Assembly (NCBI GenBank): GCA_963205175.1
Contig: CAUJIW010000183.1
Location: forward strand, 1 to 64,000
Reading direction: 5' to 3'
Source: Pseudomonadota bacterium
GTDB lineage: Bacteria; Pseudomonadota; Alphaproteobacteria; Sphingomonadales; Sphingomonadaceae
DNA length: 64,000 nt
A program made the position numbers and the translations under genes. Of this stretch, positions 2,486-53,231 are shown one piece after another (position 1 is the first letter of the stretch; the number at the start of each line of letters is the position of its first letter). The notes beneath the pieces were generated by a model. It had not been told where the DNA came from. It ran no database searches and worked only from the letters and a program-made list of their open reading frames with translations.

Positions 2486-2513
2486 GGCGGACTCCCGTTG
2501 CGCCGGATTGAAT

Positions 2514-3059
2514 TCAGCCGACGATGCGGACAGGGTCGCTGCCGTCCCAGCCGACATTGGCGAGGCGCATCGGCGTGAACAGCGCCTCGACCTTGGGCGT
2601 CACCTCGATCAGTTCGATCATGCCCGGCAGATCGCGCCGGCTGTCGACGTAGGCGGCGCGACCGCCCACCGCGACCTCGGCTTCCAGCGCCAGGTCATAG
2701 CCGTCGGCGAGATAGCCCTTGAGCACGTCGTCATAGCTCTGCGGCGTGCAGGCCACGGCGAAGTGGTGGAAGCCCCAGCCGCGCTGGTCGCGCACCTCGG
2801 TGTAAACGCTGGGCACGTCGTTGTTCTGCTGGATCAGCTCGAACATCATGCCGCCGGAAAAGCCGAGCGCCAGCGTCAGGTCGACATCGGTCGGCTGGCC
2901 GCGATAGCGCACCCAGTCGAAGGCGAAATGCTCGATGACGAACCACGGGCCGACATTGAGCTGTTTGGCGTAGGCCGGCAGGGCGGCCTTGATGTCCGGC
3001 ACGATGAAGGCCATCTGGATGACGCCGTTTTCCGGCTGGCCCCAGTTCCAATGCGGCAT
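2514..3059 (-). CDS. VOC-family (glyoxalase-like) metalloprotein
   Basis: This 181-residue protein has the two beta-alpha-beta-beta-beta modules of the vicinal-oxygen-chelate fold: module one begins at NGVIQMAFIVPDI and module two at GWGFHHFAVAC. Candidate metal ligands include His 99 or 100 and a Glu near the C-terminal PGMIELIEV segment. Members include methylmalonyl-CoA epimerases, ring-cleavage dioxygenases and lyases. The FELIQ and MIELIE positions resemble epimerase/lyase types more than extradiol dioxygenases, but this is a weak distinction. It sits between an SDR and the thiamine-diphosphate enzyme on the same strand with short gaps, so it probably acts in the same pathway. Confidence 0.75.
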   Translation of the reverse strand: MPHWNWGQPENGVIQMAFIVPDIKAALPAYAKQLNVGPWFVIEHFAFDWVRYRGQPTDVDLTLALGFSGGMMFELIQQNNDVPSVYTEVRDQRGWGFHHFAVACTPQSYDDVLKGYLADGYDLALEAEVAVGGRAAYVDSRRDLPGMIELIEVTPKVEALFTPMRLANVGWDGSDPVRIVG

Positions 3060-3092
3060 GAAGAGTCCTTTCCGTTTTCAGCTGCCCCGGTG

Positions 3093-3881
3093 TCAGCTGG
3101 CGAGGGTGAAGCCGCCGTCGATGGCAAGCGATTGCCCGGTCACGTAGCGGGCCTCGTCGGAGGCGAGGAACAGCACGGCGTTGGCGATGTCGACCGGCTC
3201 CTGGAACGCCCCCATCGGAATGTTCTGGGCAACGAATCCGGCGGCGAATTCTTCCTTCGAGACGCCTGTTTCGCTCGACAGTCGCTCGAACAGCGTCTCC
3301 AGCATCGGCGTGCGGACCTGGCCCGGGTGCACCGAATTGCAGCGGATCTTCTGTCCGCCGCGGGCACAGTGCAGCGCGATCGACTTGCTGAGATGCTCGA
3401 CCGCCGCTTTCGAGGCGCCATAGGCGGTGATGAACGGCGTGGGCACCAGGGCGGCCACCGACGAGAAGTTGATGATCGCGCCGCCGCCGGATTGGGCGAT
3501 GGGGTCGATGCCGTATTTGCAGCCAAGGAAGACGCCGGTGGCGTTGACCTCGAAAATGCGGTTCCAGTCGGCCAGCGGCGTGCCCTGCGGGTCCTTGGGG
3601 GCATCGGCGCGCCCTTCGGTGCCGGCGTTGTTGACCAGAATGTGCAGCGCGCCTTCCCGCGCCGCGATCGAGGCATAGAGGTCGAGCCACTGCTGCTCGC
3701 TGCTGACGTCGTGTCGCACGAAGCGCCCGCCGATACGCTGGGCCACCGCCTCGCCGGCGGGGTTGACGTCGCTGAGCACGACACGCGCGCCTTCTTCGGC
3801 CAGGCGTACGGCAATCGCCTCGCCCAGTCCCTGTGCCGCGCCGGTTACCAGCGCGATCTTGCCTTCAACGCGTCCTGTCAT
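3093..3881 (-). CDS. Short-chain dehydrogenase/reductase
   Basis: This 262-residue classical SDR has the cofactor motif TGAAQGLG at 13-20, NNAG at 84-87, the catalytic Ser near 140, Tyr 154 and Lys 158 (YGASK). Asp 38 after the second strand favours NAD(H) over NADP(H). It would oxidise a secondary alcohol or reduce a ketone. The start at 3881 is an ATG eleven bases downstream of the stop of the next SDR, so the two are probably cotranscribed. The neighbouring SDR is clearly related but not a recent copy. The substrate is unknown; the neighbouring TonB receptor and KshA/KstD-like genes make a hydroxysteroid-like alcohol possible, but that is inference. Confidence 0.88.
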
Positions 3882-3891
3882 GACTCACCTT

Positions 3892-4677
3892 TCAAAAATG
3901 GGCGGAAGGAGGGCCGGCCAGCTGGGCGCCATCGACCAGCAGACCGGAGCCGCTGATCATCGCAGCCTCGTCGGAGGCTGCAAACAGGCAGGCATTGGCG
4001 ATGTCCTGCGGCGTCGCCACCCGCCCGATGGGGACCAGACGCGCCATGCCCGCCAGCAGGTCGGCCCGCTGCGCACCGGCGGCCTCGGCCACCGGATCGA
4101 GCATTTCGGTATCCACATAGGTCGGGTGGATCGAGACGCAGCGGATCGGGTAGCGCTGCTCGGCACAATGCATGGCGACCGACTTGGTGAGCACGGTGAC
4201 GCCGCCCTTGCTGGCGCAATAGCCGGCGATGTCGGACGGGCCGACGATGCCGCCCATCGACGACATGTTGACAATGGCGCCGGCCCCGCCCGAGCGCACG
4301 ATGCCCTTGATGCCGTGTTTGCAGCCCAGCATCACGCCGGTGAGGTTGACGGCGATCATCGCGTGCCAGTCTTCCAGCGTCGTGTCCTCGATGCTGCCGC
4401 CGCGGCCGATGCCGGCAATGTTGGCGACGATGTCGAGCTTGCCGAAGCGGTCGATGGCGGCCTGGACGGCGGCCTCCCAGGCCGGCTCCGACGTCACGTC
4501 GAGCAGGTGGGCCTCGGCCTGTGCGCCGATAGTCCCGGCGACGCGCTGTGCCGCCGCGAGGTTGATGTCGGCGACGAACACGCTTGCGCCTTCCCGGGCG
4601 AAGGTGAGGGCGGTGGCGCGGCCGATGCCGGAGCCGCCGCCGGTCACCAGCGCCACCTTGTTCGCCAGTCTTGCCAT
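3892..4677 (-). CDS. Short-chain dehydrogenase/reductase
   Basis: This 261-residue classical SDR has TGGGSGIG at 12-19, NIAG (for NNAG) at 86-89, Ser 139/140, Tyr 153 and Lys 157 (YCASK). Asp 37 follows the second beta strand, as in NAD-dependent members. A dehydrogenase role on a secondary alcohol is expected; the long loop after the active site ([20 protein letters not shown]) would form the substrate pocket and is shared in style with 3-alpha/20-beta-hydroxysteroid dehydrogenase-like SDRs. The gene is first in the minus-strand set that continues through the next SDR, the VOC protein and the thiamine enzyme. The TonB receptor gene lies 184 bases upstream. Confidence 0.88.
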
Positions 4678-4792
4678 TGCCCTATTCTCCCCGGTTGCTG
4701 CTGTATCGGTCGGCTGAACGGTGGGTCAGGCCGGGGTGCGGGAGGGGGTGCTCCCGCGGCCGGGCCTGACGGCGTGATCGCCGGGGCAGGAA

Positions 4793-4831
4793 CCACCCGC
4801 GATGGCTGCTGGCGCAGCGCACCGCGGGTGG
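4793..4831. repeat. Inverted repeat downstream of the TonB receptor gene
   Basis: CCACCCGCG at 4793-4801 is exactly complementary to CGCGGGTGG at 4823-4831, with a 21-base loop. It lies just past the stop of the minus-strand TonB receptor gene, where a transcription end would be useful. No T-run follows on either strand, so it is at best a weak or Rho-assisted terminator. Confidence 0.3.
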
Positions 4832-4861
4832 CCATTCCTGATCCCGTTGGCGTCAGGCGCG

Positions 4862-7096
4862 TCAGAAGTTGACCTTGGCCTCCACACCGAACTGCCGGGG
4901 TTCGCCGTAGTTGTTCTCGACGAGCCCGAGCGGCGCGCCGGTGATGTCGAAGGCGTAGATCTTGCGGTTATCGTCCATCAGGTTCTTGACGAACACCGCC
5001 AGCTCGAAGCGCTCCCGCGGGTCGGTGTAGGCGATACGGGCGTTCACCAGCCAGTTGGAGGGCACCAGCGTCACCGGCGCGTTGCTGAGCTGCGAGTAGA
5101 ACTCGTCGGTGTAGACGCCGTTGAGGGTGGCGCGAACGGTACCGATGCTCAACTCGAACGCCTTGGTCGCCATCAGGCTCAAGGTGACGTCGGGGGACTG
5201 GGTCGCCTGACGATCACGGAAGCCGGTGCCGATGGGCACGTCCTCCACCTTGGTGTGCAGCAGGCTCAGGCCGGCATAGAGGGTGAGGCCGGCACCGGGC
5301 TGAACGGTGAACTCCGCGTCGGCGCCGTAGATGGTGGCGTCGGTGTTATACAGCGTGAAGTTCAGGCCGCGCTGGTCGAACGCCTGGAAGTCCTTGTAGT
5401 CATAATAGAAGGCGCTGAGGTTGAAGCGGGCCTTGCGATCCCAGAAGTCGAGCTTGTTGCCCACCTCGAAGGCGGTCAGCTTCTCGCCCTTGAAGCGGAC
5501 GCCGGCCACCGGCGCCAGACCGGCAAAGCCGGCGTTGTAGTTGAACGCCTTGTAGCCCCGGCTGATGCTGCCGTAGAGCAGCAGGCCGTCGACCGGCCGC
5601 CAGTCGAGTTCCAGCCGCCCCGACCAGCCGTTTTCCGCATGGCTGTCGTTGATGGTCCCGGCCTCGGCCATGGTGCCCGGCGCCGGCGCGAACAGCATGC
5701 CGCAGGCGTCCGGCAGGGTGACGCCGGTGCTGTCGGTATTGGTGCAGCTCTGGGTGTAGTGGTAATTCTTCTTGTCGCGGGTCCAGCGCAGGCCGGAGAC
5801 CACCGTCACCGTCGGGCTCAGCTCATAATCGACCTGGCCGAACACGGACCACGATTTGGTGGACAGGCTGTAGTCGGCCAGCATGGCGGCGCCGAAGTAC
5901 TGGACAGCGAAGCCCTGATTGTAGGTGCCATCAATATCGAGATAATAGACGCCGGTGGTCCAGTTCATCTTGTCGGTCGAACCGCTCAGCCGCAGTTCCT
6001 GCGAGAAATTGGTGCTGTCGGCGCGCTGGGTGAACACGGTGAACGGCACCGGCGACAGGTCGTTGTCTTCCCGGTAGTCGCTGTCGACTTCCGAGTAGGC
6101 GGTCAGCGAGGTCAGCACCACGCTGCCGAAATCGTACGACACATGCCCCGTGGTGCTCCACATCCGCTTGGCGACGCGGCCCGGCTCATCGAACGAGCCG
6201 GTGAAGGGATCGCCATCGGCATCCGTGTAACCGAACGAGGTCGGCTCGCCGGGCAGCGGCACACCCAGCCCGTCGGCGTTGGGCGTGCCGGCGGTCGCGT
6301 AGGCGCCGCCGGTGGTTGACGGCTTCAGCTTGTAATAGTCGGCGCTGATCAGGATATCGAGCTGCTCGTTGGGCGTGAACTGGATGTGCCCGCGCGCGGC
6401 CACGACATTTTCCTCGTTGAGGTCGGGACCGATGTCGTTCTTGTAATAGCCGTCGGACTTCGAGCGGTAGGCCGCGATACGCGCCTTCACCGTGTCGCTG
6501 AGCGGACCGCCGACAGCGCCCTCGAACGTCACGCTGTCCCGTTCGGCGACGGCGATCGAGGCGTAGCCGTCGAGTTCGTCAGTCGGCTTGTTGGTGACGA
6601 CGTGCAGCAGGCCGCCGGTCGCGTTGCGGCCGAACAGCGTGCCCTGCGGGCCTTTCAGCACTTCGACGCGCTGGACATCGAACATCTTCTGCGAGGTGGC
6701 GGAAATCGCCGGCAGATAGACCTCGTCGATGTAGAAGGAGTTCGGTGCCTCCAGGTGGCCGGCGAAGTCGTTCTGCGACACGCCGCGGATGGAAATCAGG
6801 CCGACCACCGGCGAGCCGGTATCGGTGAACGAGAAGCCGGGGACGACGCTGGTGAGGTCGTTGGGATCGGTGATCGCCAGATCCTCCATCGCCTCGCTGC
6901 CCAGCGCGGTCACGGCGATGCCGATGTCCTGGATGGCCGCTTCGCGACGGGTGGCGGTGACCACCATCTCCTGCAGCACCTCGGTGCTGGTTTCCGCATT
7001 GTCGTCGGCCCACGCCGGCGCCGCCAGCGCGATGGCGGATACCATGGCAAAGCCGGACTTCATGGCAATCGTGGTGAAACGCCTGGACGCGTTCAT
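4862..7096 (-). CDS. TonB-dependent outer-membrane receptor
   Basis: This 744-residue protein has a signal peptide ending near Ala 30 (APAWA), then a TonB-box-like segment and plug (EMVVTATRREAAIQD), plug motifs such as GLISIRGV and VEVLKGPQGTLFGRNATGG, and a long C-terminal barrel with repeated aromatic-ending strands and a terminal Phe (VEAKVNF). The ATG at 7096 follows GGGGAGGG; a longer frame to 7222 lacks a signal sequence and is rejected. It would import a large or scarce ligand across the outer membrane using TonB energy. The barrel resembles the receptors that accompany catabolic clusters in sphingomonads rather than well-known siderophore receptors. It is divergent from the cupin gene, so a shared regulatory region (7097-7280) is likely. 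Confidence 0.92.
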   Translation of the reverse strand: MNASRRFTTIAMKSGFAMVSAIALAAPAWADDNAETSTEVLQEMVVTATRREAAIQDIGIAVTALGSEAMEDLAITDPNDLTSVVPGFSFTDTGSPVVGLISIRGVSQNDFAGHLEAPNSFYIDEVYLPAISATSQKMFDVQRVEVLKGPQGTLFGRNATGGLLHVVTNKPTDELDGYASIAVAERDSVTFEGAVGGPLSDTVKARIAAYRSKSDGYYKNDIGPDLNEENVVAARGHIQFTPNEQLDILISADYYKLKPSTTGGAYATAGTPNADGLGVPLPGEPTSFGYTDADGDPFTGSFDEPGRVAKRMWSTTGHVSYDFGSVVLTSLTAYSEVDSDYREDNDLSPVPFTVFTQRADSTNFSQELRLSGSTDKMNWTTGVYYLDIDGTYNQGFAVQYFGAAMLADYSLSTKSWSVFGQVDYELSPTVTVVSGLRWTRDKKNYHYTQSCTNTDSTGVTLPDACGMLFAPAPGTMAEAGTINDSHAENGWSGRLELDWRPVDGLLLYGSISRGYKAFNYNAGFAGLAPVAGVRFKGEKLTAFEVGNKLDFWDRKARFNLSAFYYDYKDFQAFDQRGLNFTLYNTDATIYGADAEFTVQPGAGLTLYAGLSLLHTKVEDVPIGTGFRDRQATQSPDVTLSLMATKAFELSIGTVRATLNGVYTDEFYSQLSNAPVTLVPSNWLVNARIAYTDPRERFELAVFVKNLMDDNRKIYAFDITGAPLGLVENNYGEPRQFGVEAKVNF

Positions 7097-7280
7097 ATGC
7101 CCTCCCCAACTGGATGATCGTTGTTGTTGCCCGCACCCTAGCCGCTGCCCGGGGAGGGCCAATAGCGGGAAACCCCCATTGCCTCGTCGCATCGCCCGGC
7201 GTCTTTTTAGCGCGGCAAACAAGGGGGAGGTCCTGACGGATGACGACCTCCGCCGACGTCAACACATGGGGAGAAGCCGA

Positions 7281-7766
7281 ATGTCCGCCATCGTCCAGCA
7301 CACGTCCATGACCATCACCCAGCCGCACAAGCCGGCGTTCTTCGACACCAGCACCCTGCCGTGGAAGCCGTGGGTGATGGAGGGCACCCACTACAAGCTG
7401 CTCAGCATCAACCCGCGCACCGGCGGCTTCACCATGCTGCTCAAGGTCGATGCCGGCAACGAGGCGCCGGTGCATGGCCATCTCGGCACGGTGGAGGCCT
7501 ATATCGTCGAGGGCGGCTTCGGCTATGGCGCCGATCGCGGCCGGGTGGGCGCCTATGTGCTGGAGGAAGGCGGCATCAACCACCAGCCCGACACCGACAA
7601 TGACGGCGTGGTGATGTTCGCGGTCGCCCACGGCCCGCTGTGCGGCTTCAACGAGGATGGGTCAATCGCTGCGGTTGTCGATGGCAAGCTGATGTACCAA
7701 CGTGCGCGCGAACATGGCGTCGCCGGCCACATCGCCAAGCCGGAGCAGTGGACCGATATCGCCTGA
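7281..7766 (+). CDS. Cupin-domain protein, 2,4'-dihydroxyacetophenone dioxygenase-like
   Basis: This 161-residue single-domain cupin has motif one as HGH at 65-67 with Glu 72 and the second-motif histidine at His 101, a 3-His-1-Glu metal site. The general look (PWKPWVMEGTHYKLLSINP near the N-terminus) resembles the cupin family that includes 2,4'-dihydroxyacetophenone dioxygenase and acetylacetone-cleaving enzymes, which split C-C bonds next to ketones with one Fe(II). The exact substrate is not deducible. The ATG at 7281 follows GGGGAGAAG. Divergence from the TonB receptor and closeness to the LuxR gene place it in the same locus. An upstream frame extension to 6789 overlaps the receptor gene and is rejected. 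Confidence 0.75.
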   Translation: MSAIVQHTSMTITQPHKPAFFDTSTLPWKPWVMEGTHYKLLSINPRTGGFTMLLKVDAGNEAPVHGHLGTVEAYIVEGGFGYGADRGRVGAYVLEEGGINHQPDTDNDGVVMFAVAHGPLCGFNEDGSIAAVVDGKLMYQRAREHGVAGHIAKPEQWTDIA

Positions 7767-7900
7767 CTTCTCGCCGATACGCGCCGGGCCCGCTCGTCCC
7801 TGCCTTGCTCCATCCCGGCAGCGTCGATTACACTGTTGTTACCGATCGACGTCGGTGCTGGCATCGCGAAAACAAAAAGGCGGTGCAGGGGAGGACAGGT

Positions 7901-8986
7901 ATGGACGAGTTGCCCGCGCGCACGGCTGAAGAAACGCTCGACCTTTACGGGCGGATTCTCGGCTGTTCGGGATTTCGCGATCTCGGCCGGGACGTGCTGG
8001 CGCCACTGGCCCGCGAGGTCGGTGCCTCCAGCGCGGTTTTTTTGCAGTTCGTGCTGCGCCCGGGCGGGCCGGTGGTGGATCGCGGCATCACGTTCGCGCT
8101 CAATCCGCTGAGCCTTGCCAGCTATGTCGATCACTTCTACCGCTTCGACCCGGTGGCGCAGGCCTCGCGCATTCTCAACAGTTCGCCCAAGGCCGCCGAC
8201 GTAGTAACGCTGACCGAGCTCACTGATCCGCGCGAATTCCACCGCAGCGACTATTACCATGAGTTTCTGCACCGCTACGGCATCAATGATGTGCTCGGCC
8301 TGTTCATTCCGGTGCGGGCGCTCAACGACCAGATTCTCTGTGTCGGCCTGCATCGCCAGCGCGACCTTGAGCCGTTCACGCCCGCGGAGAGCCGCCGCCT
8401 GCGCCAGCTGAAATCGGTGGTGACCGCCACCTTGTCGCGCCTGTGCCTGGCCGGCGCGATGGAGGAAGTCGACGGGGCGATGGATGCGCTGGCGCAGGCG
8501 CGCCAGCCGGTCGGCCTGGTGATTTTCAACGGCCGGTTCGATGTGCTGCACGCCAACGAGAAGGGGCTGGCGGACCTCGGCGTCGTCGACCGGCAGACCA
8601 GCCGCGCCTGGCTGGAGGCCATCCGCACCGCCGCCGCCCGGTTGCCGGCGGACCGCACCGGGCCCATGCCGCTGGACGTTGCCGGCAGCGGCTTGAGTGC
8701 CCATTTGCATCGCCAGACGCTGGCCGATGGCGCCGTGCGGGTGATTGTCACCACCGTCGCGGCCGGCATGCGCTCGCGCCTGGAGGAACAGTGCCGGCGC
8801 TTCGATCTCAGTACACGGGAAATCGAGGTCGCCCATCTGCTGGGCGCCGGGCTGTCCAACGATGCCATCGGTGTGCGGCTGCAGATCAGCACCCGCACCG
8901 TCGAGAATCACCTGCGCTCGATGTACGGCAAGGCGCGCGCCTCCAGCCGCACCCAGTTTCTCGCCCAGATGTTTGGCGTGGCGTAA
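7901..8986 (+). CDS. LuxR-type helix-turn-helix transcriptional regulator
   Basis: This 361-residue protein has a C-terminal GerE/LuxR helix-turn-helix at about 303-358 (LSTREIEVAHLLGAGLSNDA, then ISTRTVENHLRSMYGKA). The first 300 residues form a sensory region with no clear match to the acyl-homoserine-lactone pocket (the WxxxY...D signature is not evident) and no luxI-like gene nearby. It more resembles the LuxR regulators with PAS/GAF-like sensors that sit beside TonB receptor and catabolic genes. The ATG at 7901 follows GGGGAGGACAGG. The stop is two bases from the convergent flavoprotein gene. It probably controls the surrounding catabolic genes, possibly through the dyad at 10290-10308, but this is inference. 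Confidence 0.85.
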   Translation: MDELPARTAEETLDLYGRILGCSGFRDLGRDVLAPLAREVGASSAVFLQFVLRPGGPVVDRGITFALNPLSLASYVDHFYRFDPVAQASRILNSSPKAADVVTLTELTDPREFHRSDYYHEFLHRYGINDVLGLFIPVRALNDQILCVGLHRQRDLEPFTPAESRRLRQLKSVVTATLSRLCLAGAMEEVDGAMDALAQARQPVGLVIFNGRFDVLHANEKGLADLGVVDRQTSRAWLEAIRTAAARLPADRTGPMPLDVAGSGLSAHLHRQTLADGAVRVIVTTVAAGMRSRLEEQCRRFDLSTREIEVAHLLGAGLSNDAIGVRLQISTRTVENHLRSMYGKARASSRTQFLAQMFGVA

Positions 8987-10534: not shown

Positions 10535-11725
10535 ATGAACATCATGGTGGGCAAGCCGGCGGCGGCGGAACAGCAGGTGCCGGCCCGGGGCCGCAAGCGG
10601 CTGCGGGATCTGTTGTTGCAGCACCCCGACGTCGACCCCTATCCAGAGGGCTGGTTCGTCCTTGAATTCGCCGACAAGGTGCGCACCGACCGGCTGATTT
10701 CGAAGAAGTTCTTCGGTCAGGACGTGGTGATCTACCGTCACCCGGACTCCGGCCAGGTGATCTGCACCCAGGCGCACTGTCCGCATCTGGGCGCCCACTT
10801 CGACAGCTACAAGAACGGCGGCTGCCTGGAAGGCGGCATCATGGTCTGCCCCTACCACCATCTGCGCTTCGACCCGCAACGCCAGATCGAGAATGGCCGC
10901 CCGGGGCCGCTGCGGATCTACCCGACCATCGAATATCACGGCTTCGTGCTGGCGCTGCGGCAGCGGGACTGGACGGCGCCGCCGCTGCCGGTGCCCAATC
11001 TCGGCTTCTCCGAGGTCGACGAGGATGATTTCCTCTACGATACCCAGTCGGTCGGCGTGTTCAACGGCGACATGCTGGTGCCGCTGATGGCCAACGCCGA
11101 CTACATGCACTTCCAGACCGTGCACGGCACGCCGGAGCCGGTGTGCGATCACGCCTTCTCCGTCTCGCCCGATGGCCGGGAGTGCTATTTCAGTTTCGAG
11201 CTGCTGGCCCGCAACGTGCACAAGGTGGACGAGGCCTATCCACGCGCCGGTCGCCTGCGCGGACTGCGGCGGATGTTCGCCCGCCCGCCGGGGAGCAAGA
11301 AGGCGCTGCCGGAGGTGCTGACGCGGGTGACGGCGGCGGGCATCGGTCCCGGGCTTGCCAAGAGCCGCTGGTGGGAGCCGCAGTTCGGCATCGACCTGCT
11401 GTCCTGGCTGTATGTGACGCCGATCGACCCCTTCACCTATGAGCTGTTCATGTGCCATGGCGCGCGCACCATCAAGGCGTTCAAGACCCGCCCGGTGCAG
11501 AAGGCGCTCAATGCCGTGGGGCTGCAGGCGCACATGTTCGCCAACCACCTTTACGTCGGTCAGGAGGACCCGCCCTTCTACACCGCCGACAAGCTGCGGC
11601 TGTACCAGCCGGCCTACCGGGCGAAGGACCAGATCATCGACAAATATATCGGCTGGTGGAAGTCGACGTTCTTCACGCCCGAGTTCCAGCGGATGATCGA
11701 GGGCTACGACCTGGACTTCAGCTAG
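10535..11725 (+). CDS. Rieske [2Fe-2S] oxygenase, KshA/steroid-desaturase-like (first)
   Basis: This 396-residue protein has the Rieske cluster ligands C82-x-H84 and C105-x2-H108, in AHCPHLGAHF and CPYHH. The mononuclear iron site is D189-x2-H192-x4-H197. The CPHLGAH form of the cluster motif is typical of the KshA/cholesterol-7-desaturase (DAF-36/Neverland) branch of Rieske oxygenases, which hydroxylate or desaturate steroids. It needs an external ferredoxin reductase, and none is adjacent. The ATG at 10535 follows GGGAGGG; an upstream start at 10502 is less likely. It opens a co-directional run to 18509. The substrate class is inferred from motif similarity only. Confidence 0.85.
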   Translation: MNIMVGKPAAAEQQVPARGRKRLRDLLLQHPDVDPYPEGWFVLEFADKVRTDRLISKKFFGQDVVIYRHPDSGQVICTQAHCPHLGAHFDSYKNGGCLEGGIMVCPYHHLRFDPQRQIENGRPGPLRIYPTIEYHGFVLALRQRDWTAPPLPVPNLGFSEVDEDDFLYDTQSVGVFNGDMLVPLMANADYMHFQTVHGTPEPVCDHAFSVSPDGRECYFSFELLARNVHKVDEAYPRAGRLRGLRRMFARPPGSKKALPEVLTRVTAAGIGPGLAKSRWWEPQFGIDLLSWLYVTPIDPFTYELFMCHGARTIKAFKTRPVQKALNAVGLQAHMFANHLYVGQEDPPFYTADKLRLYQPAYRAKDQIIDKYIGWWKSTFFTPEFQRMIEGYDLDFS

Positions 11726-11789
11726 CCGACCGCGCCGGCCGCACGCGGCCAGCCGCTTCAACTGCCAACACCTGATTCGAGTAAACGCG

Positions 11790-13493
11790 ATGTGGGATGA
11801 CTCTCGCGATGTGGTCGTCGTGGGTTCGGGCAACGGTGCCCTGACGGCCGCCCTTTGCCTGCACGACATGGGCGTGCGCGATGTGATGGTCATCGAGAAA
11901 TCGATGGAGGTCGGCGGCACCAGCGCGCTGAGCGGTGGCGGCATCTGGGTGCCCGGCAATCACTATGCGGCGGCGGCGGGCATCGAGGATTCGCTCGACG
12001 AGGCCCGGGACTATGCCCTGGCGGCCAATGGCGCGGACGACGTGCCGGCACGCCTGGTGGAAACCTACATCGAGCAGGCCCCGCGCATGCTGCGCTTCCT
12101 GCATGAGCGCAGCCGGGTGCGCTATGTCTCGCTGGCGCATTATCCCGACTATTTCTCCGACCTGCCGGGCGCGCGCGCTGGCCATCGCTCGCTGGAGCCC
12201 GAACCGGTCGACATCACCCGGCTGGCGGACCGCGGCCGGCGCCTGAAGGACGGCCACCCGATCCTGCGCATTCTCAACCGCGTGCCGATGACCCAGACCG
12301 AGGCACACAGCTTCAACGTTCAGGCGCCGGGCTGGCAATGGGCCGCAGCAAAACTTTTGCTGCACTATTTTCTCGATCTGCCGCAGCGGCGGCACACCCG
12401 CCAGTCGCGCCGCGCCACCTGCGGCAGCGCCGGCGTCGCCCGGCTGCTGTGGTCGCTGGAAGAGCGCCAGGTGCCGGTGGCGCTGGGCGTCGAGCTCAAG
12501 GATCTGGTGGTGCAGCAGGGCCGGGTGACCGGCGTCGTCGTCGAGCAGGCCGGTCGTGTCCGGCGGATCGGCTGCCGACGGGCCGTGGTGCTGGCGACCG
12601 GCGGCTTCGAGCATGACCAGGCGCTGCGCGAGCAGTATCTGCCGCAACCGACGCAGGCTGCCTGGAGCACCACCCACAAGGCCAATACCGGCACGGCGGT
12701 GGCGCTGGCGCGCCGCCACGGTGCCCGGCTGCGCCGCATGGAAGGCGCCTGGTGGGTGCCGACCTTCCGAGTGCCGGGGATCGCCCACCCCTATCCGTCG
12801 ATCATGGAGAAATCCTACCCCGGCAGCTGCGTCGTCGATGCGCGCGGCCAGCGTGTCGCCAACGAGTCGATGAACTACCAGCTCTATGTGCGCGAATGCC
12901 ATCGCCTGCACGCCAGCGGCACCGACACCAGCCGGCTGTGGCTGATCTTTGATGCCGACTTCCGGCGCAAATACATCGTCAGCCCGATCCTGACCTCGCG
13001 GCTGATGCCGGACTGGATGATCCCGCGTGCCTATTTCTGCCCGGAATTCCTCACCCGCGCCGACAGCCTGGACGATCTCGCCCGCGCGGTGGGCATCGAT
13101 GCCGCCGGGCTGGGCGCCACCATCGCGCGGTTCAACGGCTTTGCCGCGTGCGGCGAGGATGCCGACTTCGGTCGCGGCAACAGCGTCTACGACCGCTACT
13201 ACGGCGACCCGGCGGTCACGCCCAACCCGTGTCTTGCGCCGATTGCCCGACCGCCGTTTTACGCGGTGCGGATTTATCTTGGCGAGTTCGGCACCAACGG
13301 CGGGCTGGACATCGACGAGAACGGCCAGGTGCTGGCCGACGACGGCCGGCCCATCGGCGGCCTGTACGCCAACGGCAATTGCGCGGCCGCCGTGCTGCCG
13401 TCCTACCCCGGCCCCGGCGCCACGCTCGGGCCGGCCATGACCTTCGCCTATCAGGCGGCCCGCCACATCGCCGGCTACAACATGGCGCCATGA
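11790..13493 (+). CDS. FAD-binding dehydrogenase, 3-ketosteroid dehydrogenase (KstD)-like
   Basis: This 567-residue flavoprotein of the fumarate reductase/succinate dehydrogenase/KstD family has GSGNGA at 12-17 for ADP binding, GGTSALSGGGIWVPGN near 42-57 as in 3-ketosteroid dehydrogenases, LATGGFE in the middle, and the C-terminal signature GGLYANGN...YPGPGATLGPAMTF that closes the flavin pocket. Known relatives introduce double bonds into ring A of 3-ketosteroids (delta-1 or delta-4). It lies 64 bases downstream of the first Rieske gene and 46 bases upstream of the carbamoyltransferase. No signal peptide is seen, so it should act in the cytoplasm. The ring position oxidised is not predictable. 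Confidence 0.85.
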   Translation: MWDDSRDVVVVGSGNGALTAALCLHDMGVRDVMVIEKSMEVGGTSALSGGGIWVPGNHYAAAAGIEDSLDEARDYALAANGADDVPARLVETYIEQAPRMLRFLHERSRVRYVSLAHYPDYFSDLPGARAGHRSLEPEPVDITRLADRGRRLKDGHPILRILNRVPMTQTEAHSFNVQAPGWQWAAAKLLLHYFLDLPQRRHTRQSRRATCGSAGVARLLWSLEERQVPVALGVELKDLVVQQGRVTGVVVEQAGRVRRIGCRRAVVLATGGFEHDQALREQYLPQPTQAAWSTTHKANTGTAVALARRHGARLRRMEGAWWVPTFRVPGIAHPYPSIMEKSYPGSCVVDARGQRVANESMNYQLYVRECHRLHASGTDTSRLWLIFDADFRRKYIVSPILTSRLMPDWMIPRAYFCPEFLTRADSLDDLARAVGIDAAGLGATIARFNGFAACGEDADFGRGNSVYDRYYGDPAVTPNPCLAPIARPPFYAVRIYLGEFGTNGGLDIDENGQVLADDGRPIGGLYANGNCAAAVLPSYPGPGATLGPAMTFAYQAARHIAGYNMAP

Positions 13494-13539
13494 CGGGTCG
13501 TCACGTCCGCCAACGCATCAACCGAGAAGAGGTGCTGAT

Positions 13540-15354
13540 ATGGGTTCGGTGAAGACATTTGTTGGCCTGTCCTGCACGGGGCACGACGGTGCCGTGGCCC
13601 TGGTCGAGAATCGCGCGCTGGCCTTTGCCGAGGCCGCCGAGCGGTATCGCCAGAGCAAGTTCGCGGTCGGCATGGCGCCCGACGACCACCATTACTGCCG
13701 CAACGTGCTGGCCCAACATGCCTCGGGCGACGAGATCGTGCTGGCCCGCAGCTGGAGCGCGCAGGCCGATGCCATCTGGCATGCCGAGAATGATCTGCTG
13801 CGCCAGAGCATCGCCGCGCTGCCGCAGCATCGCGACGTGCTGCAACAGCTGGTGACGTTCCACCGCGACAGCTGGGACCATTTCATGAAGCCCAGCATCG
13901 ACATCGCCGGCCATGGCCTGCATCGCGCCGCTGGCGCGCTGGGCCGCCGGGTGGTCGAGACCCGCGCCTATGACCATCATCTCTGCCACGCCGCGTTCGG
14001 CGCCTGGAGCAGCCCGTTCGAGCGGGCGGCGGTGATGGTGATGGACGGCCAGGGCGAGGGGCGCGGCACGGCGTTCTGGCACTATCGCGACGGCGATCTG
14101 CACCCCATCGAGACCGAACCCTATGGCGGGGCGCTGGTCGCCTGCTACGGCAGCCTCGGGCTTTACTATGGCATTCTCGTCTGCCTGGCCTGCGGCTTCG
14201 AGCCGGTGGCGGGCGAGGAATGGAAGATCATGGGGCTGGCGCCCTACGGCCGCACCGACGAGGCGCTCTACCGCCGCCTGCAGGCGCTCTACACGGTCGA
14301 TGGCCTGAGCGTGAACTGCACCGACCAGGCGGTGGACATCTTCCTTGAGCTGGCCGGTAACCCCGTCAGCCACAAGCGGGACTTCCAGAAGGCGGCGGAC
14401 TATGCCCACACCTTCCAGCGCTATTTCGCCGACATCTCGACCGCGCTGATCCGGGAGCTGGCCCGGCGTACCGGCGAGAAGGTGCTGGTGCTGGCCGGCG
14501 GCTGCGGCCTCAATTCCTCCTTCAACGGCCGCATTGCCGGGCTGGGGGCCTTCGATCAGCTGTTCGTGCCCTGCGCGCCGGCTGACGATGGCAACGCCGC
14601 CGGTGCCGCCATGCTGGCGGCGCGCGATCATGGCGAAGGGGTGATCGCCGGCGGTGACGCCCACACGCCCTATCTGGGTTCCAGCATCGACCTTCATGCG
14701 CTGGAGGCGATCCGTCGTCATGCACCGTTCCTGCCGTGGGCGCGCTTCGACGACGAGGCGGTGCTGGTGGCGGAAGCCGCCCGCCGTATCGCCGCCGGCC
14801 AGGTGGTGGGCTGGATGCAGGGCCGGGCGGAGTTCGGTCCGCGGGCGCTGGGCAACCGCAGCATTCTGGCCGATCCGCGCCGGGCGGAAATGAAGGACCG
14901 GGTCAACGCGGTGGTCAAGTTCCGCGAGGCGTTCCGGCCGTTCGCGCCCTCGGTGCTGCATGAGGCCGGTCCCGACTATTTCAGCGACTATCAGGACAGC
15001 CCGTACATGGAGCGCACGCTGACCTTCCGGCCGGAGATGGGCGCGCGGGTGCCGGCGGTCTGCCATGCCGACGGCACCGGGCGCGCTCAGAGCGTCACCC
15101 GTGCGCGCAATCCGCTCTACCACCGGCTGATCGAGGCGTTCGCCGCCCGCACCGGCGTGCCGATGCTGCTCAACACCAGCCTCAACGTGATGGGCAAGCC
15201 GATCGTCCACAGCATCGAGGATGGCGTGCAGACCTTCCTCGGCACCGGCATCGACTGCCTGTTCGTCGGCCCCTATCTGCTGGCCAAGGATCTGGCGACC
15301 CGGCCTGAGGGGGCCTCGGCGCCGGCCAGCCAGCTCGCCGGGGAGCTGGCGTGA
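13540..15354 (+). CDS. O-carbamoyltransferase (NodU/CmcH/TobZ family)
   Basis: This 604-residue protein has the full two-domain layout of the family. The N-terminal YgjD/Kae1-like half has GHDG (H15, D16), the metal-binding DHHLCHAA (H146, H147, H150), VMDGQGEG and EEWKIMGLAPYG; then come GGCGLN and PADDGN. The C-terminal half has QGRAEFGPRALGNRSILADP and FREAFRPFAPSVL. These enzymes use carbamoyl phosphate and ATP, through a carbamoyladenylate, to place a carbamoyl group on a hydroxyl of an antibiotic, sugar or Nod factor. RBS-like AGAGG precedes the ATG at 13540. Presence in the middle of steroid-type redox genes, with its stop overlapping the next start, is unusual and suggests carbamoylation of the pathway intermediate. 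Confidence 0.92.
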   Translation: MGSVKTFVGLSCTGHDGAVALVENRALAFAEAAERYRQSKFAVGMAPDDHHYCRNVLAQHASGDEIVLARSWSAQADAIWHAENDLLRQSIAALPQHRDVLQQLVTFHRDSWDHFMKPSIDIAGHGLHRAAGALGRRVVETRAYDHHLCHAAFGAWSSPFERAAVMVMDGQGEGRGTAFWHYRDGDLHPIETEPYGGALVACYGSLGLYYGILVCLACGFEPVAGEEWKIMGLAPYGRTDEALYRRLQALYTVDGLSVNCTDQAVDIFLELAGNPVSHKRDFQKAADYAHTFQRYFADISTALIRELARRTGEKVLVLAGGCGLNSSFNGRIAGLGAFDQLFVPCAPADDGNAAGAAMLAARDHGEGVIAGGDAHTPYLGSSIDLHALEAIRRHAPFLPWARFDDEAVLVAEAARRIAAGQVVGWMQGRAEFGPRALGNRSILADPRRAEMKDRVNAVVKFREAFRPFAPSVLHEAGPDYFSDYQDSPYMERTLTFRPEMGARVPAVCHADGTGRAQSVTRARNPLYHRLIEAFAARTGVPMLLNTSLNVMGKPIVHSIEDGVQTFLGTGIDCLFVGPYLLAKDLATRPEGASAPASQLAGELA

Positions 15355-16265
15355 TGTCCGCCGCCGAGTTCCCCCCCCGGAACACGCCCCGGCACGCGGG
15401 GTCGCCCGCGCCCGGGGGCGCCCCTGAGGCCGCCGCCGAACCGGGACGTGTGTGGTTCGTCACCGGCGCCTCGTCCGGTCTCGGTCAGGCGCTGGCCCGC
15501 CGCCTGCTGGCCGGCGGCGCCCGGGTGATCGTCTCCGCCCGCGATCCGGCGGCCATCGCGCCGCTTGCCGCGGCCTACCCCGAGCAGGCGCTGGCCCTGC
15601 GGCTGGACATCCGGGACGAGGCGATGGTGGCCGACGCGGTGGCGGCGGGCCTGGCGCGTTTCGGCACCATCGACGTGCTGGTGAACAATGCCGCCTTCGG
15701 CCTGTTCGGCGCCGTGGAGGAAGTGACGGAGGCGCAGGCGCGCGCCGTGTTCGACACCAATTTCTTCGGCACCTTGCGGATGATCCGCCACGTGCTGCCG
15801 GTGATGCGCGCCCGCGCGGCGGGACGGATCATCAACATCTCCTCCGCCGTGGCGCGGTTCGGCGTCGGCGGGCTGGGCCTTTATGCCGCGTCGAAATGCG
15901 CCATCGAGGGACTGTCGACGGCCCTGGTGGGCGAGCTGGCGCCGCTGGGCATCCACGTCATGGTCGCCGAGCCGGGCGCGCTGGCCACCGCGTTCGGCGC
16001 CAACATGGCGCACGCCGACAGCCTGCCGGCCTATGGCTTCATCCGCGAGCGCTGGGCGCAGTGGCTCGATCAGGCGCTGCTGGGCGACCTCGACCGGGCG
16101 GCGGCCGCCATCGTCGAGGCCGGCCTGATGAGCGCGCCGCCGGCCACTCTGGTGCTGGGCCAGGACGCGCTGCAGCTGGTCCGTGGCAAACTGGAGGCGG
16201 ACCTTGCCGAATGCCTGCGCTGGACCCCGCTGACACTGTCCATCACGCCGGGAGCCCAGGCATGA
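15354..16265 (+). CDS. Short-chain dehydrogenase/reductase in the Rieske/carbamoyltransferase operon
   Basis: This 303-residue classical SDR has TGASSGLG near 38-45, NNAA (variant of NNAG) near 106-109, Ser near 151-152, and YAASK as catalytic Tyr and Lys near 176-180. An Arg shortly after the second strand (VSARD) suggests NADP(H). The first 30 residues are a Pro/Ala-rich extension before the fold. Its ATG overlaps the stop of the carbamoyltransferase (a GTG three bases earlier is an alternative), and its own stop overlaps the OYE start, so translation is coupled. A hydroxyl/ketone interconversion on the shared substrate is the likely role. Confidence 0.88.
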   Translation: MSAAEFPPRNTPRHAGSPAPGGAPEAAAEPGRVWFVTGASSGLGQALARRLLAGGARVIVSARDPAAIAPLAAAYPEQALALRLDIRDEAMVADAVAAGLARFGTIDVLVNNAAFGLFGAVEEVTEAQARAVFDTNFFGTLRMIRHVLPVMRARAAGRIINISSAVARFGVGGLGLYAASKCAIEGLSTALVGELAPLGIHVMVAEPGALATAFGANMAHADSLPAYGFIRERWAQWLDQALLGDLDRAAAAIVEAGLMSAPPATLVLGQDALQLVRGKLEADLAECLRWTPLTLSITPGAQA

Positions 16266-17431
16266 ACGTCGCCGTCTCCATCGACGCCCGGACGGCGTTG
16301 CTGTTCTCGCCCTGCCGCCTCGCCGGCCTCGATCTGCGCAGCCGGATCGTCATGGCGCCGATGACCCGCTGCATGGCCGAGGACGGTGTGCCGGGTCCCG
16401 CCACCGCCAGCTACTACGCCCGGCGCGCGGCGGCCGACGTGGGCCTGATCATGAGCGAGGGCATCGGCGTCGATCATCCCGCCGCGCTGGGCGAGGGCAC
16501 GTTTGGCGAGCGCAACATGCCGGTGCTGCAGGGCGCGGCGGCGATCGCTGGCTGGCGGGCGGTCACCGATGCCGTGCATGCCGCCGGCGGGCTTATCTTC
16601 GCCCAGCTCTGGCATCAGGGCCCGCTGCGGCGCCCCGGCAGCGGGCCGCAGCCGCGCGCTGTCTCGTGCCGGCCCGATGGTCGCTGGGGCCCGCTCGACG
16701 GCAGCACCAGCGCGCCGCCGGATTACCTTGAGGCGGTGCGCCCGCCCACCGTGGCGATGACGGACAACGACATCGCCGACGTCATCGCCGCGTTCGGGCG
16801 TTCGGCCGCCCATGCGCAGACGGCCGGCTTCGACGGCATCGCCCTGCATGGCGCCCATGGCTACCTGATCGACAGCTTCCTGTGGCCCGAGACCAACAGT
16901 CGCGTCGACGCCTGGGGCCGCACGCTGGCGGCGCGGACCCGCTTCGCGGTGGCGGTGATCGAGGCGGTGCGCGCCGCCGCGCCGGCGCTGCCGGTGGCGT
17001 TTCGCTATTCGCAATGGAAGCTGCAGGACTATGACGCCCGGCTGGTCGACACGCCGGACATGCTGGCGGCACTGCTGGCGCCGCTGGTCGATGCGGGCGT
17101 CGACCTTTTCGATGTCAGCACGCGGGTGTTCCATCGCCCTGCCTTTGCCGGGTCGCCGCTGTCGCTGGCGGGCTGGACGCGCAGGCTTACCGGCGTGCCG
17201 GCGATCGCCGTCGGCGGCGTCGGCCTCAGCCGCGAGCTCAAGGACTCGCTGATGGCGGTGGTGCCGGCGGAGGACAATGTCGCCCGCGCCGTGGTGGCGA
17301 TCGAGCGCGGCGAGTTCGACCTGCTGGGGGTCGGCCGCGCGCTGCTCGCCGATCCCGACTGGGCTCGCAAGCTGCGCCAGGGGGCGCCGTTGCCGGCCTT
17401 CTCGCCCGCCGCCTTCGCCACCCTGATCTAG
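16262..17431 (+). CDS. Old Yellow Enzyme family NADH:flavin oxidoreductase
   Basis: This 389-residue FMN-binding TIM-barrel protein has MAPMTRCM near 31-38, QLWHQG near 115-120, and the substrate-binding pair HGAH (H196, H199) followed by GYLIDSFL. The His/His pair occurs in part of the family, where others have His/Asn. Near the C-terminus AVGGVG and LLGVGRALLADPDW bind the FMN phosphate. The family reduces activated C=C bonds of enones, steroids and similar compounds. The ATG overlaps the SDR stop (ATGA). In this operon it could reverse or redirect a double bond set by the KstD-like enzyme, or reduce another enone. The substrate is not predictable. Confidence 0.88.
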   Translation: MNVAVSIDARTALLFSPCRLAGLDLRSRIVMAPMTRCMAEDGVPGPATASYYARRAAADVGLIMSEGIGVDHPAALGEGTFGERNMPVLQGAAAIAGWRAVTDAVHAAGGLIFAQLWHQGPLRRPGSGPQPRAVSCRPDGRWGPLDGSTSAPPDYLEAVRPPTVAMTDNDIADVIAAFGRSAAHAQTAGFDGIALHGAHGYLIDSFLWPETNSRVDAWGRTLAARTRFAVAVIEAVRAAAPALPVAFRYSQWKLQDYDARLVDTPDMLAALLAPLVDAGVDLFDVSTRVFHRPAFAGSPLSLAGWTRRLTGVPAIAVGGVGLSRELKDSLMAVVPAEDNVARAVVAIERGEFDLLGVGRALLADPDWARKLRQGAPLPAFSPAAFATLI

Positions 17432-17436
17432 CGCCG

Positions 17437-17483
17437 CCCCGTCATCGGCCCTGTTTGCGGCCCCGTTATGGCCCTGTTTACGG
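17437..17483. repeat. Imperfect tandem repeat, two copies of about 24 bases
   Basis: Bases 17437-17460 and 17461-17483 repeat the pattern CCCCGT-AT-GGCCCTGTTT-CGG with three differences, one of them a single-base gap. The repeat fills the space between the OYE stop and the ribosome-binding site of the second Rieske gene. It looks like a local duplication; no hairpin or known binding site is obvious. Confidence 0.6.
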
Positions 17484-17498
17484 CAAGGAGACCTCGTC

Positions 17499-18509
17499 AT
17501 GGCCAGCATCGCCCCGTCGCCGCTTGCGCCCGCCCAACGCTATGGCCTGCCGATCCCGGTCGGCTGGTATCACCTGTGTCCGGCCGATGAGCTGGCGCCC
17601 GGCGCCGTGCGCACGCTGACGCTGTTCGGCGGCCAGTGGGTGCTGTTCCGCGATCAGGCCGGCACCGCCGGTGTGGTGGAGCCCTACTGCCGGCATCTGG
17701 GCGCCCATCTGGGTGTCGGCGGCGTCGTCGACGGGGCGCTGCTGCGCTGCCCGTTTCATAAGTGGGGCTACGACACCGCCGGCTTCTGCCGCGACATTCC
17801 CTATGCCCGCAAGATGCCGCCGGTGCTGGAACGCGCGCCGGCGCTGCGGGCACTGCCGGTGCGCGAGGCGGCCGGCGGCATCTGGGCCTGGTACCACCCG
17901 GCGGGCGCGGCGCCCGACTGGTCTCTCGACGCGCTGGTCGAGGCGGTGCCGGCGGACTGGCGGCAGCGGGCGGGGCCGGTGCACGACATCCACACCATCG
18001 CCCAGGAGATCGGCGAGAACAGCGTCGATGGCCCCCACCTGGTCTATGTCCACGGTCAGCCGGTGGTGCCCAACGGCCAGTCGCAGTACGCGGGACCGCT
18101 ACGCCAGACACTGATCAATACGCAGCTGCCGATCGAGGGCGAGGACGGCCAGATGCACAGCTGCGACTACCGGCTCAACCTCCAGCAATGGGGGCCGGGT
18201 CTGCAGATCCTGCGCCAGGAGCGCTATGTCAGCCTGCTCAACATCATGACCATCACGCCGCTCGACACCGCGCTGACGCGTCTGCGCTTCACCTTTTTCC
18301 ATCCGCCCTACGAGGATGGCTTCCGCCAGCGGATGATCGACGAGCTGATCGAGGAACAGGTCGGCCAACGCGGCGACTATGCGGGCGTTGAAGCGGACTT
18401 GCCGATCTGGGACAACAAGATCTATCGCGCCCAACCCCTGCTGTGCGATGGCGACGGGCCGATCCTGCAGTACCGCGCCTGGTTCCGGCAATTCTATCCT
18501 GTCGCGTGA
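17499..18509 (+). CDS. Rieske [2Fe-2S] oxygenase, KshA/steroid-desaturase-like (second)
   Basis: This 336-residue protein has C64-x-H66 and C84-x2-H87 as Rieske cluster ligands (YCRHLGAHLG, CPFHKWGY) and a textbook mononuclear iron site N174-x2-D177-x2-H180-x4-H185. The CxHLGAHLGxGG form matches the KshA/Neverland branch more closely than the first Rieske protein of this run, so the two are not recent duplicates and probably act at different positions. AAGGAG precedes the ATG at 17499. It is the last gene of the run; the next gene is an antiporter after 181 bases. Electron donors (ferredoxin and reductase) are not encoded in the run. Confidence 0.87.
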   Translation: MASIAPSPLAPAQRYGLPIPVGWYHLCPADELAPGAVRTLTLFGGQWVLFRDQAGTAGVVEPYCRHLGAHLGVGGVVDGALLRCPFHKWGYDTAGFCRDIPYARKMPPVLERAPALRALPVREAAGGIWAWYHPAGAAPDWSLDALVEAVPADWRQRAGPVHDIHTIAQEIGENSVDGPHLVYVHGQPVVPNGQSQYAGPLRQTLINTQLPIEGEDGQMHSCDYRLNLQQWGPGLQILRQERYVSLLNIMTITPLDTALTRLRFTFFHPPYEDGFRQRMIDELIEEQVGQRGDYAGVEADLPIWDNKIYRAQPLLCDGDGPILQYRAWFRQFYPVA

Positions 18510-51989: not shown

Positions 51990-53231
51990 ATGCTGTCCAT
52001 CACCCGAGAGGAAGCCCGGCCGCTGGACTGGATCGCCGAGCGTCAGGCCGCGATGACCGAGACGGTAATGGCCTGGAGCGCCATCAATTCGGGCAGTCGC
52101 AACCTGGCCGGCCTCGACCGCATGGCCACCGCCCTGGAACAGGCTTTCGGCGCGCTGGGGCCGGTGCGGCTGGTGGCGCCCGAGCCGGTGTCGGCGCCTG
52201 ATAACGACGGCTGCCTGCAACCGCTGCCGCATGGCCGCATCTTCCACCTGACGGTCCGGCCGGAGGCTCGGCATCGGGTGCTGCTGGCCGGCCACATGGA
52301 CACCGTGTTCGCCGCCGACCACCCGTTCCAGGCCCCGCGCTGGCGCGAGCCGGGCGTGCTGAACGGCCCCGGCGTCGCCGACATGAAGGGCGGCCTGCTG
52401 GTGATGCTGCACGCCCTGCTGGCGCTCGAACAGTCACCGTGGGCCGGCGGCCTTGGCTACGAGGTGGTCATCAACGCCGACGAGGAGGTGTCCTCGCTGG
52501 GCTCGGCCGCGCTGCTGGCGGCGGCCGCCCGCCGCGCTGACATCGGCCTGGTCTATGAACCCGCCTTGCCGGATGGCCGGCTGGCCGGCGCCCGCAAGGG
52601 CATCGGCACCTACGCGGTGCTGGCGCAGGGCCGGGCCGCGCACGCCGGCCGCAACCCGGAGGCCGGTCGCAACGCGGTGCTGGCGGTGGCCGACCTGTTC
52701 GTGCGGCTGGCGCGGTTGCCGCGCGTGCGCGACGGGCTGACGGTCAATGTCGCGTCGCTGGGCGGCGGCGGGCCGACCAACGTGGTGCCGGCCCAGGCGG
52801 TGGGCCGCTTCGAGGTCCGTTGCTGGAGCCATGAGGATCGCCATTGGGCGCAGGCACAGGTGGCCGCCATTGTCGCCGAGGTCGCAGGCCATCATGACGT
52901 CAGCCTGACCGTGCACGGCGGCTTCAACCGGCCGCCCAAGCCGCTGGATGCGGTGCAGGCGGGGCTGTTCGAGGCCGTGAGGGGCTGCGGCGCCGATCTG
53001 GGTCTGGCCGTCGACTGGGCGCCCTCGGGCGGCTGCTGCGACGGCAACAACCTGGCGGCGCAGGGCCTGCCGGTGGTCGACAGTCTGGGTGTACGCGGCG
53101 GCGCCATTCACTCGGCGGAGGAATTCTTGATCGTTGACAGCATGACCGAGCGTGCCCGGCTGTCGGCGCTGCTGCTGATGCGGCTGGCCAGCGGCGCCCT
53201 CGCCTGGCCGGCCCGGGGGCCACGGCCATGA
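51990..53231 (+). CDS. M20-family metallohydrolase of the arginine succinyltransferase operon
   Basis: This 413-residue protein has the M20 zinc site: H102 and D104 in GHMDTVF, the bridging Asp in VADMKGG near 132, Glu pair in NADEEVSS near 168-169, and HSAEEF near the C-terminus. It lies directly ahead of astA and overlaps its start by four bases. In the classical pathway AstE removes succinate from N-succinylglutamate; here an M20 amidohydrolase occupies that place, so it may perform the desuccinylation instead. That assignment is inference from position and chemistry. Confidence 0.83.
   Translation: MLSITREEARPLDWIAERQAAMTETVMAWSAINSGSRNLAGLDRMATALEQAFGALGPVRLVAPEPVSAPDNDGCLQPLPHGRIFHLTVRPEARHRVLLAGHMDTVFAADHPFQAPRWREPGVLNGPGVADMKGGLLVMLHALLALEQSPWAGGLGYEVVINADEEVSSLGSAALLAAAARRADIGLVYEPALPDGRLAGARKGIGTYAVLAQGRAAHAGRNPEAGRNAVLAVADLFVRLARLPRVRDGLTVNVASLGGGGPTNVVPAQAVGRFEVRCWSHEDRHWAQAQVAAIVAEVAGHHDVSLTVHGGFNRPPKPLDAVQAGLFEAVRGCGADLGLAVDWAPSGGCCDGNNLAAQGLPVVDSLGVRGGAIHSAEEFLIVDSMTERARLSALLLMRLASGALAWPARGPRP

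What the first reader, a model, noticed from the sequence alone, without database searches (positions are those of the whole stretch)
10535..18509. O-carbamoyltransferase inside a steroid-type redox operon
Six co-directional genes (Rieske, KstD-like FAD enzyme, carbamoyltransferase, SDR, OYE, Rieske) include three with overlapping or touching ends around the carbamoyltransferase. Seen: complete catalytic motifs for every enzyme. Known: KshA-like Rieske enzymes, KstD, OYE and SDR act on steroids and other polycyclics, while NodU/CmcH-type enzymes carbamoylate hydroxyls of antibiotics and Nod factors. I know of no described steroid or terpenoid pathway that joins the two. Inference: a hydroxyl of a polycyclic substrate is carbamoylated to activate, protect or mark it, or the locus makes a carbamoylated metabolite.
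Basis: partly seen in the sequence, partly recalled or inferred. Interest (0 to 1): 0.75.

Follow-up and report, generated by a model that had tools for sequence, protein, structure and literature searches.

The report
Carbamoyltransferase operon in steroid-degrading bacteria
A small, rare and conserved set of genes couples steroid-style oxidising and reducing enzymes to an enzyme that attaches a carbamate group to hydroxyls, and it turns up only in bacteria that also carry steroid-breakdown genes, which hints at an undescribed way of handling a steroid-like molecule.

Summary
Window 10535-18509 encodes six intact co-directional genes: Rieske, KstD-like, carbamoyltransferase (CarbT), SDR, OYE, Rieske (KshA_C). 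CarbT/SDR and SDR/OYE overlap by 4 bp. The core order Rieske-KstD-CarbT-OYE-Rieske is conserved at 53-74% identity in Pseudomonas vancouverensis DhA-51 and a second Pseudomonas, without the SDR and under purifying selection. About 84,980 species genomes yielded only DhA-51 by CarbT pattern scan. All three carriers also encode separate 9,10-seco steroid-degradation genes (second KstD, another KshA, HsaA and HsaC relatives), which fits the 'steroid-type' reading. The cluster KstD keeps all four catalytic residues of delta1-ketosteroid dehydrogenases. CarbT folds like TobZ/NovN/GdmN/VtdB and keeps the residues probed by mutation in TobZ. However, the second Rieske is not the KshA orthologue, the first Rieske is an orphan, no electron-transfer partner is present, and substrate and product are unknown. 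Rieske-CarbT pairing is known outside steroids (saxitoxin). Best reading: an accessory module that carbamoylates a hydroxyl of a steroid-like polycycle. Whether for catabolism or for making a carbamoylated metabolite is open.

The parts
10535..11725 (+). Rieske1: orphan Rieske non-heme iron oxygenase, 396 aa
   Evidence: PF00355 46 bits; 74% identical to the DhA-51 orthologue, start codon aligned; best PDB relative only 32 bits; CPH...CPYH and DYMHFQTVH read in the sequence
11790..13493 (+). KstD-like FAD dehydrogenase, 567 aa
   Evidence: 472 bits to 7p18 (3-oxosteroid 1-dehydrogenase), next KstDs 237 bits; Y119/Y318/Y487/G491 equivalents conserved in the printed alignment; PRK12844 493 bits but below its cut-off 789
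13540..15354 (+). CarbT: TobZ/NodU-type O-carbamoyltransferase, 604 aa
   Evidence: PF02543 + PF16861; only PF02543 gene in its genome; AlphaFold pLDDT 93.6; Foldseek best hits NovN, TobZ, GdmN, VtdB at E 1e-43 to 1e-40; H15, K460, M490, S547 conserved
15351..16265 (+). SDR, 304 aa, 4-bp overlaps on both sides; absent from the Pseudomonas clusters
   Evidence: PF00106 164 bits; not found in the L026 or L136 clusters
16262..17431 (+). OYE-family ene-reductase, 389 aa
   Evidence: PF00724 177 bits; relatives SYE1, OPR3, GTN reductase; 63.5-67% to Pseudomonas orthologues
17499..18509 (+). Rieske2: KshA_C-domain Rieske oxygenase, 336 aa, not the KshA orthologue
   Evidence: PF19298 90 bits against 182 bits for another KshA of the same genome; 27-29% to the other KshAs and 53-55% to the cluster orthologues

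Best explanation
The operon is an accessory module that remodels a steroid-like (3-oxo polycyclic) molecule, and CarbT attaches a carbamoyl group, through carbamoyl-adenylate made from carbamoyl phosphate and ATP, to one of its hydroxyls. Shown: intact genes, conserved order in very different genomes (the window's and two Pseudomonas), purifying selection, TobZ-type fold and residues, delta1-KstD catalytic residues, and steroid-degradation genes elsewhere in every carrier. Inferred: KstD inserts a ring-A double bond; the two Rieske oxygenases hydroxylate the skeleton, using a reductase encoded elsewhere; OYE reduces an enone; SDR (where present) interconverts a hydroxyl and a ketone; CarbT caps a new or pre-existing hydroxyl. 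My preferred but unproven purpose is catabolic: the carbamate protects the hydroxyl or serves as a leaving group or recognition handle, so that a steroid the main pathway cannot take is brought into the 9,10-seco route.
For: Core order Rieske1-KstD-CarbT-OYE-Rieske2 conserved in DhA-51 and a second Pseudomonas, with CarbT overlapping the next gene by 4 bp in both the window and DhA-51. dN/dS 0.04-0.12 for the five genes between the two Pseudomonas, 0.066 for CarbT. Each carrier has a second KstD with a KshA nearby, plus HsaA and/or HsaC relatives and acetaldehyde dehydrogenase or aldolase genes; the KshA of G574 scores 396 bits to KshA of known structure. Among 399 Pseudomonas genomes, 27 have a KshA_C hit of at least 260 bits, and both cluster carriers are among them (naive P 0.004). 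In G574 the cluster lies about 80 kb from the steroid genes. KstD catalytic residues intact. CarbT fold and residues intact.
Against: No experiment or metabolite links the operon to steroids. The two Pseudomonas carriers may share ancestry, so the association is weaker than the naive P. Related carbamoyltransferases sit in natural-product-like loci (fatty-acid type in Rugamonas, PKS in Azospirillum), not catabolic ones. Rieske2 is not KshA, and Rieske1 is unlike any steroid oxygenase of known structure. OYE and SDR are broad families that say little about substrate. DhA-51 is listed as a dehydroabietic-acid degrader (PMC6891630), so a diterpenoid is possible.
Confidence: 0.45

Rival explanations
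1. A small tailoring cluster that makes and keeps (or releases) a carbamoylated steroid- or terpenoid-like metabolite, for example a signal or antibacterial compound, rather than degrading a substrate.
For: Characterised members of this carbamoyltransferase family make natural products (NovN, TobZ, GdmN, VtdB). Uncharacterised relatives lie in fatty-acid-type and PKS loci. A separate KstD and KshA_C gene next to a complete catabolic set elsewhere would suit a separate product.
Against: No scaffold-building enzyme, exporter or resistance gene in the operon. All carriers hold catabolic steroid genes.
Confidence: 0.25
2. The substrate is a non-steroid polycycle, such as a plant diterpenoid resin acid, with the carbamoyl group added during its degradation or detoxification.
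For: DhA-51 is listed as a dehydroabietic-acid degrader (PMC6891630). Rieske1 has no steroid relative of known structure. OYE relatives include enzymes for oxylipins, nitrate esters and artemisinic aldehyde.
Against: The KstD resembles 3-oxosteroid dehydrogenases throughout its length, and resin acids lack the 3-oxo group it needs (own knowledge). A paper search joining resin acid, Rieske and carbamoyltransferase gave none. Presence of resin-acid (dit) genes in the carriers was not tested.
Confidence: 0.2
3. CarbT inactivates a toxic polycyclic alcohol by carbamoylation and the redox enzymes are incidental neighbours.
For: The cluster is rare and accessory; carbamoylation changes polarity and hydrogen bonding (own knowledge).
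Against: Two redox genes are more conserved than CarbT itself (Rieske1 74%, KstD 69%, CarbT 66%), order is kept, and CarbT overlaps the next gene in the window and in DhA-51.
Confidence: 0.08

Closest known systems
TobZ/NovN/GdmN/VtdB O-carbamoyltransferases (NodU/CmcH family)
   Same: Both Pfam domains, whole fold (Foldseek E 1e-43 to 1e-40), HxxxH motif, TobZ H14/K443/M473/S530 equivalents
   Different: Only about 30% identity; distinct clade with no characterised member in the tree built here; partners are steroid-type redox enzymes
Saxitoxin tailoring genes (Rieske sxtH/sxtT, carbamoyltransferase sxtI, sxtU)
   Same: Rieske oxygenases together with an O-carbamoyltransferase (PMC3037375); SxtT recognises the carbamate of its substrate (PMC8752792). 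A Planktothrix plasmid carries a 42%-identical carbamoyltransferase beside a Rieske gene
   Different: No scaffold genes in the operon; KstD is steroid-type and an OYE is present; carriers are steroid degraders by gene content
9,10-seco steroid degradation (KstD, KshAB, Hsa proteins)
   Same: KstD and KshA_C-type Rieske enzymes; such gene sets exist elsewhere in the carriers
   Different: The cluster lacks hsa genes and KshB, and adds CarbT, an OYE and an orphan Rieske; the word carbamoyl does not occur in the pathway review read here (PMC8399759)
3-oxosteroid 1-dehydrogenase of PDB 7p18
   Same: Full-length match, 472 bits; catalytic residues kept
   Different: Different operon; substrate untested

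Membership tests
TobZ/NodU-type O-carbamoyltransferase | N-terminal Kae1-like and C-terminal YrdC-like domains | tested here: met
   PF02543 108 bits and PF16861 229 bits; Foldseek whole-length to TobZ, NovN, GdmN, VtdB
TobZ/NodU-type O-carbamoyltransferase | Metal-binding HxxxH and residues probed by TobZ mutants (H14, K443, M473, S530) | tested here: met
   H146, H150, K460, M490, S547 invariant and H15 nearly so in 58 sequences; spacings 460-490-547 equal TobZ 443-473-530 (TobZ variants named)
TobZ/NodU-type O-carbamoyltransferase | Transfers carbamoyl from carbamoyl-AMP to a hydroxyl | not testable with these tools
   needs an enzyme assay
delta1-3-ketosteroid dehydrogenase (KstD) | Catalytic Tyr119, Tyr318, Tyr487, Gly491 (Rhodococcus KstD1 numbering; roles from own knowledge) | tested here: met
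   alignment: YPDYF, NESMNY, YPGPG
delta1-3-ketosteroid dehydrogenase (KstD) | Reaches the NCBIfam equivalog cut-off | tested here: not met
   493 bits against 789; the other KstDs of the carriers also miss it, with 509 and 599 bits
KshA 3-ketosteroid 9alpha-hydroxylase | KshA_C domain over the gathering cut-off | tested here: met
   Rieske2 90 bits, cut-off 23.3
KshA 3-ketosteroid 9alpha-hydroxylase | Orthology to characterised KshA | tested here: not met
   108 bits to KshA structures against 396 bits for the separate KshA of G574; 27-29% identity to the other KshAs
Saxitoxin-type cluster | Rieske and carbamoyltransferase together | tested here: met
   this operon; pairing described in PMC3037375
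Saxitoxin-type cluster | Scaffold genes (sxtA, sxtG) | tested here: inconclusive
   none in the operon or its immediate neighbours; whole genome not searched
9,10-seco steroid degradation cluster | hsaA/hsaC/hsaD in the locus | tested here: not met
   not in the operon; relatives present elsewhere in the genome

The most novel reading that the evidence does not exclude
Some steroid-degrading bacteria use enzymatic O-carbamoylation of a steroid hydroxyl as an activation, leaving-group or recognition step, a reaction not described in steroid metabolism in the literature searched here.
Probability: 0.3. Interest if true: 0.75.

Novelty: new variant of a known kind. Interest (0 to 1): 0.55.

Why it matters
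If true, it adds a carbamate-forming step to steroid or terpenoid metabolism, gives an enzyme that could carbamoylate drug-like polycyclic alcohols, and defines a testable five-gene cassette in a culturable strain (P. vancouverensis DhA-51).

Tried and rejected
An AlphaFold model of Rieske1 from a two-row alignment was useless (pLDDT 29). Literature searches joining carbamoyltransferase with resin acid, steroid degradation or ketosteroid terms gave nothing relevant. A chance grouping was rejected because order and selection are conserved. A recent transfer was rejected: identity to Pseudomonas is only 53-74%, and the cluster GC is close to that of its flanks in each host. Rieske2 as plain KshA was rejected. 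The LysR gene beside the cluster in both Pseudomonas was not found in 7 other KshA-bearing Pseudomonas, so there it probably belongs to the cassette, but it is not in the window. The plasmid idea got no support: no plasmid record carries a close Rieske1 or CarbT.

Full report
Observation. Six co-directional genes fill 10535-18509 on the + strand. Rieske1 begins at the ATG at 10535, which aligns with its orthologue in P. vancouverensis DhA-51. CarbT and SDR, and SDR and OYE, overlap by 4 bp. Every gene is intact and its catalytic motifs can be read. CarbT is the only member of its family (PF02543) in the genome.

Conservation. A pattern-based scan of one genome for each of 84,980 species with CarbT returned 77 loci. 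Only one, P. vancouverensis DhA-51 (L026), holds the partners: Rieske1 72%, KstD 70%, CarbT 67%, OYE 65%, Rieske2 54%, in the same order but without the SDR. A search of 399 Pseudomonas genomes with Rieske1 found a second carrier, G574, with the same five genes. No other carrier appeared in 398 genomes of the window's family or 385 of its class. In both Pseudomonas the cassette follows a divergent LysR gene that 7 other KshA-bearing Pseudomonas lack. Between the two Pseudomonas dN/dS is 0.035-0.119 for the five genes, 0.066 for CarbT. The operon is therefore rare, not recently transferred between the two groups, and selected as a unit.

Steroid context. All three carriers have a second KstD (42-43% to the cluster KstD) near a KshA_C protein that scores 182 bits (window genome) or 262 bits (Pseudomonas), against 92-112 bits for the cluster Rieske2. 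The G574 KshA matches KshA of known structure at 396 bits. Near these or elsewhere in the same genomes are relatives of HsaA (361-400 bits, window genome and G574), HsaC (about 310 bits, both Pseudomonas), HsaD (window genome), acetaldehyde dehydrogenase and hydroxy-oxovalerate aldolase. The Hsa scores are below the strict NCBIfam cut-offs, so these assignments rest on family and company. In G574 the steroid genes lie about 80 kb from the cassette. Of 399 Pseudomonas genomes 27 have a KshA_C hit of 260 bits or more, and both carriers are among them (counted by hand; naive probability 0.004). The two carriers may be related, so this is suggestive, not decisive.

Enzymes. The KstD matches PDB 7p18 (3-oxosteroid 1-dehydrogenase) along its length at 472 bits, twice the score of other KstDs. 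The residues equivalent to Tyr119, Tyr318, Tyr487 and Gly491 of Rhodococcus KstD1 are kept (residue roles from own knowledge). CarbT was modelled at mean pLDDT 93.6, and Foldseek places it with NovN, TobZ, GdmN and VtdB over its whole length. The residues altered in the TobZ variants listed there (H14, K443, M473, S530) correspond to H15, K460, M490 and S547, with identical spacing for the last three. In the tree the three cluster CarbTs form their own long-branched clade far from NovN and VtdB. A few otherwise common residues are changed only there (R41 to F, R276 to V, P17 to G); this is a lead, not evidence. The nearest uncharacterised relative in Rugamonas stands with an AMP ligase, a ketosynthase-III-like protein, desaturases and a hydrolase, and the one in Azospirillum between long genes that read as polyketide synthases (by eye).

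What it is not. Rieske2 is not the KshA orthologue: it shares 27-29% with the other KshAs and 53-55% with its cluster orthologues, and it has a closer paralogue (40%) in another locus of the window's genome. Rieske1 matches only the Rieske domain. No ferredoxin or reductase is in the operon, so both oxygenases must borrow one.

Precedent. Saxitoxin clusters join Rieske oxygenases and an O-carbamoyltransferase (PMC3037375), and SxtT contacts the carbamate of its substrate through Arg204 (PMC8752792). A Planktothrix plasmid carries a carbamoyltransferase 42% identical to CarbT 244 bp from a Rieske gene; I did not open that region. OYE-family flavoenzymes act on steroid ring A in bile-acid degraders, but those are larger enzymes (PMC8399759). 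I found no paper that reports carbamoylation in steroid degradation, in an open-access library only.

Conclusion. What CarbT modifies, and whether the purpose is degradation or making a carbamoylated product, cannot be settled from sequence.

Noticed in passing
window 53228-56977: One uninterrupted 1249-aa frame spans astA and astB, with astD (54222-55658) in another frame between them; it looks like a fusion but is the ordinary astA-astD-astB order.
   Followed up: yes
window 764-8986: Upstream of the operon lie a TPP-dependent enzyme, an SDR, a TonB-dependent receptor, a cupin protein and a LuxR regulator, possibly another catabolic locus.
   Followed up: partly
L146:8095-9195: The window's genome holds a second Rieske2-like oxygenase (40%) beside an MFS-like transporter, an amidohydrolase-like gene, a LysR and an SDR (by eye): another catabolic locus.
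   Followed up: partly
L103:9965-11988: Burkholderia cenocepacia plasmid NZ_CP091014.1 has two tandem KshA-like Rieske genes that carry no annotation in the PLSDB table.
   Followed up: no
L027, L028, L035: Sister carbamoyltransferases in Rugamonas, Paracidovorax and Variovorax; the Rugamonas one lies in what looks like a fatty-acid-derived product cluster (AMP ligase, ketosynthase III-like, desaturases, hydrolase).
   Followed up: partly
L049:8658-13698: The Methylococcus capsulatus carbamoyltransferase is followed by a haem-oxygenase-like iron redox enzyme and preceded by a desaturase; function unknown.
   Followed up: no
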